A stretch of 64,000 nt of DNA from Akkermansiaceae bacterium (GTDB lineage: Bacteria; Verrucomicrobiota; Verrucomicrobiia; Verrucomicrobiales; Akkermansiaceae). The notes beneath the pieces were generated by a model that saw nothing but the letters and a program-made list of their open reading frames with translations, did not search any database and had not been told where the DNA came from. The position numbers were made by a program, and so were the translations under genes. Where the stretch lies: positions 1 through 64,000 of the forward strand of contig JANXMQ010000069.1 of the NCBI GenBank assembly GCA_025354565.1, in the 5' to 3' direction. Shown here in pieces: positions 36,442-39,660 of this stretch (positions within the stretch are counted from its first letter, which is position 1; every line of letters begins with the position of its first letter).

Positions 36442-39400
36442 ATGTCAGACGCCCGTAAACCATTCCCCTTCCGCGATTTCGAGCCCCAATGGCAACAGCG
36501 CTGGGAGGCTGAGAAAACCTTCCGCACCCCCGGCCCGGGCGATGCCGATTTCGATGCCACGAAGCCGAAATACTACGTGCTCGACATGTTCCCTTACCCC
36601 AGCGGCGCGGGCTTGCACGTCGGACATCCGGAAGGCTATACCGCCACCGACATCATTGGCCGCTACAAGCGGATGAAGGGCTTCAATGTTCTCCATCCGA
36701 TGGGTTACGACTCGTTCGGCCTGCCGGCGGAGCAATACGCGATCAAGACCGGCCAGCATCCGGCGATCACCACGGCGGCGAATATCGAGAATTTCCGACG
36801 GCAGTTGAAATCGCTGGGTTTCGGCTACGATTGGGACCGCGAAATCGCCACGACCGACACGGAATACGTGCGCTGGACGCAGTGGATTTTCCTCCAGCTT
36901 TACGGGTCCTACTACTGCGAGGAAACCTGCAAGGCGAAGTCCGTTAGGGAACTCGAAGCGAAGGGCTGGACCCGCGATCAGATCGACGACGTCCGCCTGG
37001 CCTACGTCGCAAACACGCCGGTCTGGTGGTCGCCCGACCTCGGCACCGTGCTGGCGAACGAGGAAGTCGAGGAGTGGAAATCGAAAGGCCACACCGTCGA
37101 GCGCCGCCCGCTGCGCCAATGGATGCTGCGAATCACGAAATACGCCCAACGATTAATCGATGAGCTCGATACTCTCGATTGGCCAGAATCCATCAAGACG
37201 TCCCAGAAGAACTGGATCGGCCGCAGTGAGGGGGCGGCTGTTAAATTTGAAATTTCAGATCTCAAATTTGAAATTGAGGTATTCACCACCCGTCCTGACA
37301 CACTCTTCGGTGCGACTTATATGGTGCTTGCCCCCGAGCATCCGCTCGTTTCCGAAATCACGACTGCCGAGCAAAAGGCCGCGGTCGAGGCCTATCAGAA
37401 AGCGATTTCCTCCAAGTCCGACATGGACCGCGGAGATTTGAACAAAGACAAGTCCGGTGTCTTCACCGGTGCCTTCGCCGTCAATCCGGTCAACAACGAC
37501 AAAATCCCCGTTTGGATCGCCGACTACGTGATGATGGGCTACGGTACTGGCGCGATCATGGCAGTGCCTGCGCATGATGAGCGGGATTGGGAATTTGCGA
37601 AACGCTTTGACCTGCCGATCCGGCAGGTCGTTTCAAGGAGTGTGGGCGTCTCGCCCACAAGTCCCTATCTCAACCCTGAAAATGACATCGAAAAATCCAA
37701 ACCCTTCCTGCTGCCCCACTGGCAGCAAGATTCCAAACTCTACTTCGTTACGTGGCGTCTCTTGGACAGTCTCCCCGCCGAAAAAATCAGGGAATGGAAA
37801 GACGAACGCGACGTTTGGCTCGCTACCCACCCGGAGCCGTGGAGTGCGGAGATCGAACAGGAATACCACGAGCAATTTTCCAATTCCATCGACAAGTGGC
37901 TCGATGCCGGAAGCGGTGAATGTGTGTTGAAAGACCCCGCTATCGCGAAGATTGTCTGGGATGCACTGCTTCATTTCGATGGCGATCGCTACCTGATGGA
38001 TTCTTTCGTAGTGATGCCGAATCACGTTCACGCGATGTTTCGCTTAGCTCCCGAAATCAAGCTGGAGGACGTGATACAATCGTGGAAAAGCTTTACATCG
38101 AAGAGCATCAATAAGGCTCTGGGGCATGAAGGCACTCTTTGGCAACGCGATTATTGGGACCGAATCGTTAGAGACTCAGATCACCACACTAACATCCTAG
38201 ACTACATCAGGAAAAATCCTGAACGCGCAAACTTGAAAGCTGGAACATTCGCGCTTTACTCAAGGAGTGGAGGCGTCTCGCCCACAAGTCCATCTGCTAG
38301 CAAACTCGTGGGCGAGACGCCCACACTCCTTGAAGCCTTCACCGAAACTGGCGCTGCCATCAATTCCGGTTTCCTCGACGGCCTTCCCACCATCGAAGCC
38401 AAGGCTAAGATGATCGACTGGTTAGAATCCAACCACCAAGGCAAACGCCGCATCCAATACAAACTCCGCGATTGGCTCTTCTCCCGCCAGCGCTACTGGG
38501 GCGAGCCGTTCCCGATCATTTGGAAAGACGGCCATCACCACGCCATTTCCGATAGCGAACTCCCGCTGCTCGCGCCGCCGCTCGAGGACTACAAACCTAG
38601 CGGCACGCCCGAACCGATCCTCAGCAAGGCCACCGCCTGGGTGAATCTCCCCGACGGCACCACCCGCGAAACCAACACCATGCCGCAATGGGCCGGCTCG
38701 TGCTGGTATTACCTGCGCTATTGCGATCCGAAGAACGCGGACCGTTTCATTTCGAAGGAGGCAGAAGCGTACTGGTCAGATGAAAAGCCGGGTATGATAG
38801 ACCTCTACGTCGGCGGTACGGAACACGCCGTACTTCACCTGCTCTACGCCCGCTTCTGGCATAAAGTCCTCTTCGACCTCGGTCATGTTAGAACTCCCGA
38901 GCCGTTTCAGAAACTCGTCAACCAAGGCCTCATCCTCGGCGAGGACGGCCAGAAAATGTCCAAATCCCGCGGCAACGTGGTGAACCCAGACGACGTCGTT
39001 TCCGAATACGGAGCCGATGCGCTGCGCCTCTACGAAATGTTCATGGGCCCGCTGGAACAGGTGAAGCCGTGGCAGATGAAGGGCGTCGAGGGCGTCTCGC
39101 GTTTCCTCGCCAAAGTGTGGCGTGTGGCATTCGATGAGCAGGCAGACGGCTCATTCAGCGTTTCTCCGAGAGTTCAAGACGTCCCATGCACGGACAAGGA
39201 ACTACTTCGCACGGTTCATGACACCATCAAGAAAGTCGGCGAAGCCATCGAGGAACTCAGTTTCAACACTGCGATCTCATTTATGATGACTTGCACGAAA
39301 CCTTTCACTCACGCCGAGGTCGTGCCCTTGAAGGAATTCACGCAGTTACTCGCCGTGCTCAACCCTTTTGCCCCGCATCTCACCGAAGAAATCCACGCCC

Positions 39401-39660
39401 GTCTCGGCGGCAACACGATGCTATCAGAATCCACTTGGCCCACCTACGACGAAGCCGCGCTCGTTAGAAGCGAGATCGAACTCGTCGTGCAAGTGAATGG
39501 CAAACTCCGCGACCGCCTGATGGTCACCAAGAACCTCGACGAAGAAGGTGCCAAAACCGCCGCCTTCGCCAGCAGCAAGGTGAACGAGCATCTCGAAGGC
39601 AAGACAATCCGCAAGATCGTCTTCATCCCCGGCAAAATCTTCAACATCGTCGCGAACTGA
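36442..39660 (+). CDS. leuS: Leucyl-tRNA synthetase with an in-frame RAYT transposase inserted in the CP1 editing domain
   Basis: A 1072-residue class I synthetase, about 230 residues longer than usual. The catalytic core has HVGH (residues 59-62, the HIGH equivalent) and KMSKSRGNVV (from 838), and the C-terminal anticodon and LeuRS-specific domains are present. The editing domain has the threonine-rich TTRPDTLFGATY (about 282) and GTGAIMAVPAHDERDWEFA with the catalytic Asp (379-382). Immediately after PIRQVV (about residue 395) the chain departs from LeuRS into a complete RAYT and returns at about 632 (EAFTETGAAINSGFLDGLPTIEAKAKM), continuing to YKLRDWLFSRQRYWGEP. A second small insertion, residues 267-279, is a DNA repeat. 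No stop or frameshift interrupts any part. Confidence 0.93.
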   Translation: MSDARKPFPFRDFEPQWQQRWEAEKTFRTPGPGDADFDATKPKYYVLDMFPYPSGAGLHVGHPEGYTATDIIGRYKRMKGFNVLHPMGYDSFGLPAEQYAIKTGQHPAITTAANIENFRRQLKSLGFGYDWDREIATTDTEYVRWTQWIFLQLYGSYYCEETCKAKSVRELEAKGWTRDQIDDVRLAYVANTPVWWSPDLGTVLANEEVEEWKSKGHTVERRPLRQWMLRITKYAQRLIDELDTLDWPESIKTSQKNWIGRSEGAAVKFEISDLKFEIEVFTTRPDTLFGATYMVLAPEHPLVSEITTAEQKAAVEAYQKAISSKSDMDRGDLNKDKSGVFTGAFAVNPVNNDKIPVWIADYVMMGYGTGAIMAVPAHDERDWEFAKRFDLPIRQVVSRSVGVSPTSPYLNPENDIEKSKPFLLPHWQQDSKLYFVTWRLLDSLPAEKIREWKDERDVWLATHPEPWSAEIEQEYHEQFSNSIDKWLDAGSGECVLKDPAIAKIVWDALLHFDGDRYLMDSFVVMPNHVHAMFRLAPEIKLEDVIQSWKSFTSKSINKALGHEGTLWQRDYWDRIVRDSDHHTNILDYIRKNPERANLKAGTFALYSRSGGVSPTSPSASKLVGETPTLLEAFTETGAAINSGFLDGLPTIEAKAKMIDWLESNHQGKRRIQYKLRDWLFSRQRYWGEPFPIIWKDGHHHAISDSELPLLAPPLEDYKPSGTPEPILSKATAWVNLPDGTTRETNTMPQWAGSCWYYLRYCDPKNADRFISKEAEAYWSDEKPGMIDLYVGGTEHAVLHLLYARFWHKVLFDLGHVRTPEPFQKLVNQGLILGEDGQKMSKSRGNVVNPDDVVSEYGADALRLYEMFMGPLEQVKPWQMKGVEGVSRFLAKVWRVAFDEQADGSFSVSPRVQDVPCTDKELLRTVHDTIKKVGEAIEELSFNTAISFMMTCTKPFTHAEVVPLKEFTQLLAVLNPFAPHLTEEIHARLGGNTMLSESTWPTYDEAALVRSEIELVVQVNGKLRDRLMVTKNLDEEGAKTAAFASSKVNEHLEGKTIRKIVFIPGKIFNIVAN
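37241..37278. repeat. CAAATTTGAAATT-type repeat inside the leuS coding sequence
   Basis: Within the CP1 domain, TTAAATTTGAAATTTCAG is followed by ATCTCAAATTTGAAATT, encoding VKFEISDLKFEIE just before the threonine-rich editing motif. The second word is identical over 17 bases to the atpD-atpC spacer at 30341-30357. LeuRS proteins usually have a short variable beta-turn here. Confidence 0.85.
37632..37662 (+). repeat. REP-like hairpin, left end of the leuS insertion
   Basis: GGAG followed by TGTGGGCGTCTCGCCCACA. The stem is 7 bp (GTGGGCG/CGCCCAC, one more pair with the flanking T/A). It is translated as SRSVGVSPTS within LeuRS. RAYTs are known to recognise such hairpins with a short guide tetranucleotide at their foot. 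Confidence 0.88.
38261..38289 (+). repeat. REP-like sequence, internal direct copy
   Basis: CAAGGAGTGGAGGCGTCTCG then CCCACAAGT, the same orientation as the left end, 27 of 29 positions identical. The changes weaken its own hairpin. It lies just after the transposase and is translated as SRSGGVSPTS. With the copy at 38304 it forms a head-to-head pair, as in two-REP units. Confidence 0.88.
38304..38334 (-). repeat. REP-like hairpin, right end of the leuS insertion
   Basis: Inverted copy of the left end, ACTCGTGGGCGAGACGCCCA then CACTCCTTGAA. It is translated as LVGETPTLLE before the LeuRS sequence resumes. One mismatch to the left end (38307). Confidence 0.88.

What the first reader, a model, noticed from the sequence alone, without database searches (positions are those of the whole stretch)
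36442..39660. Leucyl-tRNA synthetase carrying a complete, uninterrupted RAYT transposase inside its editing domain
Seen: the leuS frame runs 1072 codons without a stop. Residues before about 396 and after about 632 are LeuRS, including the HIGH-like and KMSKS motifs and the editing residues; between them is a full REP-associated tyrosine transposase (HUH motif MPNHVH, catalytic Tyr in DYIRKNPERANL) bounded by inverted REP-like hairpins. The insertion is placed about a dozen residues after the editing Asp, in the LeuRS family's variable region. The repeat-to-repeat length is a multiple of three, and the flanking hairpins are open in the LeuRS frame. There is no in-frame ATG before the HUH region, so the transposase seems to be expressed only as a domain of an essential enzyme. 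Known: RAYTs are single-copy, domesticated enzymes acting on REP hairpins; insertions in CP1 are tolerated in some aminoacyl-tRNA synthetases. Inference: this could be an intein-like lifestyle by which the transposase is kept alive by the host gene, or even a regulated editing domain. Alternatively the host has a second leuS and this copy is decaying; intactness argues against old decay.
Basis: partly seen in the sequence, partly recalled or inferred. Interest (0 to 1): 0.93.

Follow-up and report, generated by a model that had tools for sequence, protein, structure and literature searches.

The report
Transposase living inside essential tRNA-charging enzyme
In this bacterium the only gene found for leucyl-tRNA synthetase, an essential enzyme of protein synthesis, contains a whole transposase in the same reading frame, and related bacteria carry such transposases at the same spot and inside other conserved genes, so the transposase likely persists like an intein that is never cut out.

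Summary
The 1072-codon leuS at 36442-39660 is the only leuS found in a 95% complete genome. It carries a REP-associated tyrosine transposase (RAYT) with its REP hairpins, 234 codons in frame, in a loop just behind the editing Asp. In the same genus 19 of 73 genomes (70 with a leuS match) have a RAYT at this leuS site, none with a stop. Embedded RAYTs keep HUH (73 of 73) and the catalytic Tyr (72 of 73) and have omega 0.07, like LeuRS. The site changes quickly: two LeuRS that are 99.3% identical differ in having the RAYT; one relative has a REP pair only, two have REP remnants, and three RAYT types with different REPs occupy it (one common origin is not excluded). The same habit, with largely gene-specific RAYT lineages, occurs in carB, metH, ispG (also in this genome) and hsdR. 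Genomes whose leuS carries this REP type have more such REPs elsewhere (p about 6e-6, kinship not corrected), so the LeuRS-borne transposase is probably active. Best reading: an in-frame REP/RAYT element with an intein-like life but no splicing. REPs inside genes are known; whole RAYTs inside essential genes I did not find in print.

The parts
36442..39660 (+). leuS ORF with the in-frame RAYT, 1072 codons
   Evidence: only leuS found in the genome
36442..37632 (+). LeuRS N-terminal part: catalytic half with HVGH (36616-36627) and editing domain with its Asp (codon 379, 37576-37578)
   Evidence: these residues near-invariant or invariant in alignment A2 of 57 fusions
37632..37662 (+). left REP hairpin, translated as (S)RSVGVSPTS
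37711..38241 (+). RAYT core (codons 424-600)
   Evidence: hit to solved TnpA-REP 4er8, E 4.6e-5
38014..38031 (+). HUH motif MPNHVH (codons 525-530)
   Evidence: aligned
38203..38205 (+). catalytic Tyr codon (588) in DYIRKNP
38260..38291 (+). second REP, direct copy of the left one (94%)
38304..38334 (-). right REP, inverted, translated as VGETPTLLE
38335..39660 (+). LeuRS C-terminal part with KMSKS (38953-38967) and anticodon-binding domain

Best explanation
A complete REP-flanked transposase gene of the RAYT kind sits in frame inside the only leuS found here, and it likely lives as an unspliced, intein-like domain that is predicted to be made as part of a working leucyl-tRNA synthetase. Shown: one open frame through both junctions, conserved catalytic residues, purifying selection, the same site occupied, empty, or holding only REPs in relatives, three RAYT types at this site, and RAYTs in frame in other host genes, clustered by host gene. 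Inferred: (1) the element entered a loop that tolerates an extra domain, and only stop-free, in-frame copies survive in an essential gene; the REP hairpins are stop-free in the frames used and become linkers. (2) Once there, frameshifts, stops and promoter loss in the transposase are lethal because they also break LeuRS, so the host gene protects it; the way out is an exact in-frame deletion, for instance between the two direct REP copies, which would leave a REP pair as seen in relative G001. (3) The LeuRS-borne RAYT still acts on REP DNA elsewhere. (4) It spreads between species by exchange of leuS alleles or by re-entry at leftover REPs, which would explain its fidelity to one gene.
For: One leuS. 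Genus: 73 genomes examined, 70 with a leuS match, 19 with a RAYT in leuS, 19 of 19 without a stop; that search reads through stops, so it is not biased to open frames. HUH 73 of 73 and Tyr 72 of 73 leuS-embedded domains; 19 of 19 and 18 of 19 genus loci, the miss cut by a contig end. Omega: RAYT 0.071 (12 sequences), LeuRS N part 0.054 (10), C part 0.071 (10); omega = 1 (kappa set to 2) worse by 496, 1052 and 1145 log units. LeuRS 99.3% identical over 833 aligned residues with (P0054) and without (G008) RAYT; occupied/not needs at least 18 changes on the LeuRS tree of 77 rows, and type-A occupation is hardly clustered on it (20 changes, shuffled 22.1). REP-only and REP-remnant sites. 343-domain tree: carB 14 rows 1 change, ispG 8/1, metH 8/2, leuS 73/3, hsdR 51/11, all groups 27 against 154 shuffled. 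REP population outside leuS tracks the leuS RAYT type: 12 genomes median 4.5 against 52 with median 0, p 5.8e-6; type B p 0.013 in 25 genomes. The other three RAYTs of this genome have other hairpins. Met between junction and core in only 4 of 66 fusion rows.
Against: No expression, protein or activity data. Separate entries into leuS are not proven: the tree gives three leuS clades (68, 3, 2), but well-supported branches force only one and an AU test does not reject a single leuS clade (p 0.69). LeuRS and RAYT trees agree only partly: Mantel 0.50 against 0.89 for the two LeuRS halves, 7 of 52 splits shared. Type-B and type-C REPs are less clean: G023 has 21 type-B-like REPs with no leuS RAYT, and G001 has 11 type-C-like REPs, one of them beside its carB RAYT. 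Some type-A genomes have 0-1 REPs outside leuS, and some others up to 6-8; that test ignores kinship and genome size. The window RAYT scores below NCBIfam's RAYT cut-off. The insert has lower GC3 than leuS (0.59 against 0.73). Purifying selection could be for folding alone. The AlphaFold model is weak (pLDDT 65, pTM 0.44).
Confidence: 0.66

Rival explanations
1. Inert passenger: the element once landed in a tolerant loop and is now carried only because LeuRS needs an open frame; it folds but no longer acts on DNA.
For: All 66 fusion rows with both flanks recognised have the RAYT in one loop; LeuRS keeps the frame open on its own account; folding alone gives low omega.
Against: HUH 73/73 and Tyr 72/73; REP numbers outside leuS track the embedded type; REP loop variants in G000 and G018 follow their own leuS REPs (20 TCT:3 CCC against 4:8, p 0.002); frequent gain and loss.
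Confidence: 0.17
2. Domesticated domain: the host keeps the RAYT because it regulates LeuRS or links charging to DNA processing.
For: Purifying selection; recurrence in metabolic and translation enzymes.
Against: Most genus members lack it; near-identical LeuRS with and without it; unrelated hosts (carB, metH, ispG, hsdR, priA) share no obvious function; quick turnover at the site.
Confidence: 0.12
3. The insert is removed before the enzyme works, by protein splicing (intein) or RNA splicing (IStron-like intron).
For: In-frame presence in essential genes is typical of inteins (recalled).
Against: No intein domain among Pfam or NCBIfam hits of the whole protein; no Rfam match in 36000-40000; an intron would not need the frame kept, yet 19 of 19 genus cases have no stop.
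Confidence: 0.03
4. Assembly artefact or decaying second leuS.
For: REP repeats do break assemblies (the G019 contig ends in the insert).
Against: Single leuS; 65 other listed database proteins held by JGI, ENA, NCBI or other sources; 19 genus genomes; strong selection on both parts.
Confidence: 0.01

Closest known systems
REPtron / RAYT (TnpA-REP) with REP or REPIN populations
   Same: HUH plus one Tyr, REP hairpins on both sides, REPs of the same sequence scattered in the genome
   Different: The gene has no ATG ahead of its core and no stop of its own; it is a stretch of another, essential gene
Intragenic REPs and Rickettsia palindromic elements (De Nocera et al. 2013, PMC3733652: sections 15 and 16 read, other passages seen by search)
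   Same: Palindromic repeats translated in frame inside proteins, tRNA synthetases included, with Opitutus terrae (Verrucomicrobia) the richest in intragenic GTAG repeats
   Different: Those inserts are REPs only; here the whole transposase is in frame as well, at recurrent sites and with largely gene-specific lineages
Inteins with homing endonuclease (recalled)
   Same: In-frame, in conserved genes, same sites re-used, patchy gain and loss, element-borne DNA enzyme
   Different: No splicing domain found; the insert is predicted to stay in the protein; the DNA enzyme is an HUH transposase
IStrons: intron joined to an IS200/IS605 element (recalled)
   Same: IS200-like transposase made harmless to its host gene
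   Different: Harmlessness comes from an open frame, not RNA splicing; no Rfam hit

Membership tests
Bacterial LeuRS (TIGR00396) | Score above the curated cut-off | tested here: met
   968 bits against 548 in three stretches
Bacterial LeuRS (TIGR00396) | HVGH and KMSKS motifs and editing Asp present | tested here: met
   KMSKS and the Asp invariant, HVGH near-invariant in A2
RAYT / TnpA-REP | Y1 transposase domain with HUH and catalytic Tyr | tested here: met
   Y1_Tnp 41 bits against 23 for the insert alone; HUH and Tyr in place; aligns to TnpA-REP 4er8
RAYT / TnpA-REP | NCBIfam REP_Tyr_transpos cut-off (80 bits) | tested here: not met
   75.3 bits alone, 71.0 in the whole protein; embedded relatives L143 and L012 pass with 81.4 and 80.4
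RAYT / TnpA-REP | Flanking REP hairpins that recur in the genome | tested here: met
RAYT / TnpA-REP | Cuts and moves REP DNA | not testable with these tools
   Indirect only: REP numbers track the leuS RAYT type
Intein | Hint splicing domain | tested here: not met
   none among Pfam and NCBIfam hits of the whole protein
Intein | Homing into empty alleles | tested here: inconclusive
Intragenic REP (De Nocera type) | REP inside a coding frame without breaking it | tested here: met
   REP-only case in G001
IStron / group I intron | Catalytic intron RNA | tested here: not met
   No Rfam match at gathering threshold in 36000-40000

The most novel reading that the evidence does not exclude
A new class of mobile protein element: transposases that live permanently as unspliced domains of essential enzymes (leuS, carB, ispG, metH, hsdR), each lineage faithful to one site of one gene, still driving a REP population across the genome from inside the host enzyme and re-entering empty alleles.
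Probability: 0.45. Interest if true: 0.96.

Novelty: new variant of a known kind. Interest (0 to 1): 0.91.

Why it matters
A recent model of REP persistence takes it that a REPIN copied into a gene destroys it (PMC8049555, passage seen). Here a whole transposase appears to use essential genes as its home and, by sharing the reading frame, makes its own loss dangerous for the host. That offers an answer to an open question about RAYTs: how a seemingly domesticated transposase and its REPs can last for long times. It also gives natural examples of enzymes that tolerate a large foreign domain, and near-identical pairs with and without it for direct experiments.

Tried and rejected
Second leuS: none; the weaker hits on C198, C149, C230 and C50 score 20-93 bits, below the leuS cut-off. 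Intron or other known structured RNA: no Rfam match. Intein: no domain hit. Simple vertical inheritance of one insertion: does not fit, since occupied/not needs at least 18 changes and the trees agree only partly. Several independent RAYT entries into leuS: my first reading, not upheld; three RAYT types exist (types B and C are 55-57% identical to the nearest type A tested; type B is nearer, 63-65%, to hsdR RAYTs), but one common leuS clade is not rejected (AU p 0.69). My odds did not change, as a single leuS lineage fits the same explanation. Structure: the aligned AlphaFold model is weak; Foldseek recognises LeuRS with rmsd 11-14, so I base nothing on domain placement beyond low confidence (below 50) at 399-428 and 609-636.

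Selection and labels. One search lists only proteins 0.55-1.75 times the query's length, so it favours fusions, and 120 of its 383 hits were listed; one search listed 120 of 1229. The scan (80 of 427 loci kept) used a pattern with the first HUH His, so HUH counts of loci L053-L132 are partly by construction; the script picked frames by PNH.H, but would have failed had a locus lacked it. Many 'solo' RAYTs lie on short contigs, several named as restriction subunits by their source, so some may be cut fusions. Of 80 rows labelled leuS, 66 had both flanks recognised (four of these repeat another row); the other 14 were left out of the flank work, and 55 of the 66 entered. In the REP test 9 of 61 non-type-A genomes with no resolved leuS site were dropped by my judgement; with them p is 9.6e-6. 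G051 was counted as non-type-A, although its RAYT is in the big clade, because its REP differs. Host clusters are BLAST links: ten of 12 carB loci were not profiled one by one, and the hsdR cluster holds at least one row with HsdM-like domains (P0066). In one search six metH, two ispG, one carB and one TPR label rest on like sequence read by eye.

Prior description: searches showed no paper on a RAYT inside leuS or another essential gene; most subscription papers and all bioRxiv preprints are outside that library, and Bertels et al. 2017 is not held. Of PMC2817692, PMC6006769 and PMC8049555 I saw passages only.
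Full report
The ORF at 36442-39660 (+) is open for 1072 codons. It contains LeuRS domains on both sides of a Y1 transposase domain and scores 968 bits as bacterial LeuRS in three stretches. The insert of 702 nt, 234 codons (37633-38334), begins and ends in REP hairpins that are 97% complementary to each other; a third REP lies just inside the right end as a direct copy of the left one. By alignment to T. thermophilus LeuRS (1h3n) the insert falls between residues 365 and 373, behind the editing Asp. The genome (5.1 Mb, 95.4% complete, 0.3% contamination) has no other leuS that the search could find. There is no Met between codons 399 and 518; Met519 lies just before the HUH motif.

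It is not a lone oddity. In the database the most similar RAYT domains are other leuS-embedded ones, up to 84% identical (120 of 383 hits listed), while the listed short proteins are 47-57% identical, save one with 71% over 66% of the query (120 of 1229 listed). In the same genus 73 genomes were examined; 70 have a leuS match and 19 of them carry a RAYT in it, none with a stop, although stops are read through in that search. Nineteen is a lower bound, since some sites lie at contig ends. All 19 loci were read: HUH in 19, Tyr in 18, the last cut by a contig end; left junctions were recognised in 17 and right ones in 16. Of 66 fusion rows with both flanks recognised (four of them repeats), each has, as I read them, REP-like translated sequence on both sides of the RAYT (SVGVSPTS ... 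VGETPTLL or variants), sometimes as in-frame arrays; only 4 rows have a Met between the junction and the core.

The embedded transposase looks functional. In the 319-domain alignment the two His of HUH are kept in 73 of 73 leuS-embedded domains and the Tyr in 72 (some loci were found with a pattern that includes the first His). Codon models give omega 0.071 for the RAYT core (12 sequences), 0.054 for LeuRS N-terminal and 0.071 for C-terminal parts (10 each); omega fixed at 1, with kappa 2, is worse by 496, 1052 and 1145 log units (a first run on 7, 7 and 5 sequences gave 0.069, 0.053 and 0.071). Synonymous changes are many, so these values are rough. Genomes whose leuS carries the GTGGGCG-type RAYT have more REPs of that sequence outside leuS: 12 genomes, median 4.5, against 52 with a resolved site, median 0, p 5.8e-6, and 1.9e-5 without the largest genome. 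The three other RAYTs found in this genome have different hairpins, so the leuS RAYT is the only partner found here for the 14 exact REP copies outside leuS. The loop variants of these REPs in G000 and G018 follow their own leuS REPs (p 0.002). Type-B REPs also rank high in the two type-B genomes of the 25 tested (p 0.013), but G023 has more without a leuS RAYT; type-C REPs are most frequent in the genus sample in G001, where one lies beside a carB RAYT. None of these tests corrects for kinship.

The site is dynamic. Among the 30 leuS loci printed, 7 have the RAYT, one (G001) has a REP pair alone with the same outer boundaries, two (G006, G007) have REP remnants, 10 have a plain 46-residue stretch, and the rest have other loops or were not read through. 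The REP pair of G001 is what an in-frame deletion between the two direct REPs of a layout like this window's would leave (the direction of change is inferred). P0054 has the RAYT and G008 lacks it, though their LeuRS are 99.3% identical over 833 aligned residues. On a LeuRS tree of 77 rows, occupied against not needs at least 18 changes, and type-A occupation is little more clustered than shuffled labels (20 against 22.1). Three RAYT types with different REPs are found at the site. A quick tree puts the leuS RAYTs in three clades of 68, 3 and 2 rows, but the main branch has modest support (0.69), well-supported branches force only one origin, and an AU test does not reject one leuS clade (p 0.69). 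So either one leuS lineage has diverged widely, or the site was entered more than once. LeuRS and RAYT histories agree only partly (Mantel 0.50 against 0.89 for the LeuRS halves; 7 of 52 splits shared against 0.16 at random), which points to some movement between species.

leuS is one host of many. Of the 80 best genome loci 48 have the RAYT in a frame that runs more than 120 codons beyond it on at least one side. Host genes by profile: carbamoyl-phosphate synthase large chain, IspG, methionine synthase MetH, PriA, HsdR, Eco57I-type methylases, adenosine deaminase, glycosyltransferases and others. Some, such as AnmK, UPF0261 and the sulfatase, have the RAYT at one end and may be plain fusions. 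The site is constant within a gene: host residues after the RAYT are 597-651 in 11 of 12 carB loci, and host residues before it are 229-296 in 45 of 52 hsdR-cluster rows, contig-cut rows included in both totals; 181-202 residues follow it in 8 of 8 metH loci. On a 343-domain tree the host gene is strongly clustered: carB 14 rows in 1 change, ispG 8 in 1, metH 8 in 2, leuS 73 in 3, hsdR 51 in 11; 27 changes in all against 154 in shuffles. This window's genome itself holds a second case, a RAYT with another hairpin inside ispG.

How it most likely works. The REP hairpins and the RAYT have no stop in the frame used, so a copy that lands in frame in a tolerant loop does not kill an essential gene. 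From then on frameshifts and stops are removed by selection on the host gene, which keeps the transposase whole. Loss needs an exact deletion. Gene-clustered lineages and quick turnover point to exchange of host-gene alleles between species, or re-entry at leftover REPs; the data do not separate these. That the fusion is translated, charges tRNA and cuts DNA is inferred, from the single leuS, residue conservation, selection and REP numbers.

What is known. De Nocera et al. 2013 (PMC3733652; sections 15 and 16 read, other passages) describe REPs inside coding frames, tRNA synthetases included, with Opitutus terrae the richest in intragenic GTAG repeats, and REPtrons as RAYT genes with their REPs. 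PMC6006769 (passages seen) notes that a few unexpectedly long Y1 proteins were put down to fusions or annotation errors and discarded. PMC8049555 (passages seen) calls RAYTs single-copy genes inherited vertically for millions of years and models REPINs as destroying genes they enter. Nine searches showed no report of a RAYT inside leuS or another essential gene. Inteins and IStrons are compared from memory.

Noticed in passing
L012:589-3105 (-) (G000:C121): The same genome carries another RAYT in frame inside ispG (GcpE), with a different hairpin (CTGGGAC...GTCCCAG), so two of its four RAYTs found by protein search sit in conserved biosynthetic genes.
   Followed up: partly
L158 / L030 (G001 leuS): A pair of REPs without RAYT lies in frame at exactly the same leuS site: an in-frame REPIN in a tRNA synthetase.
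   Followed up: yes
P0083, P0074, P0010 (database proteins): Proteins with two RAYT domains: two in an IspG, two in a DUF1156 protein, and one tandem RAYT pair without another recognised domain.
   Followed up: no
L041, L043, L044, L032 (G015, G005, G012, G023 leuS): The same LeuRS stretch holds other in-frame extra sequence (88, 79, 75 and 70 residues instead of 46) with no RAYT or clear REP; origin unknown.
   Followed up: no
L133-L157 (metH, ispG, carB and other loci): metH, carB and ispG of same-genus and same-order genomes carry in-frame RAYTs at near-constant sites; each gene would deserve the same study as leuS.
   Followed up: partly
database hsdR proteins, for example P0067, P0078, P0070, P0112: RAYT in frame between the HSDR_N nuclease domain and the helicase of type I restriction enzymes (profiled in P0067 and P0078); P0070 and P0112 come from records named Pseudomonadota and Wenzhouxiangella, so the habit is not confined to Verrucomicrobiota.
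   Followed up: partly
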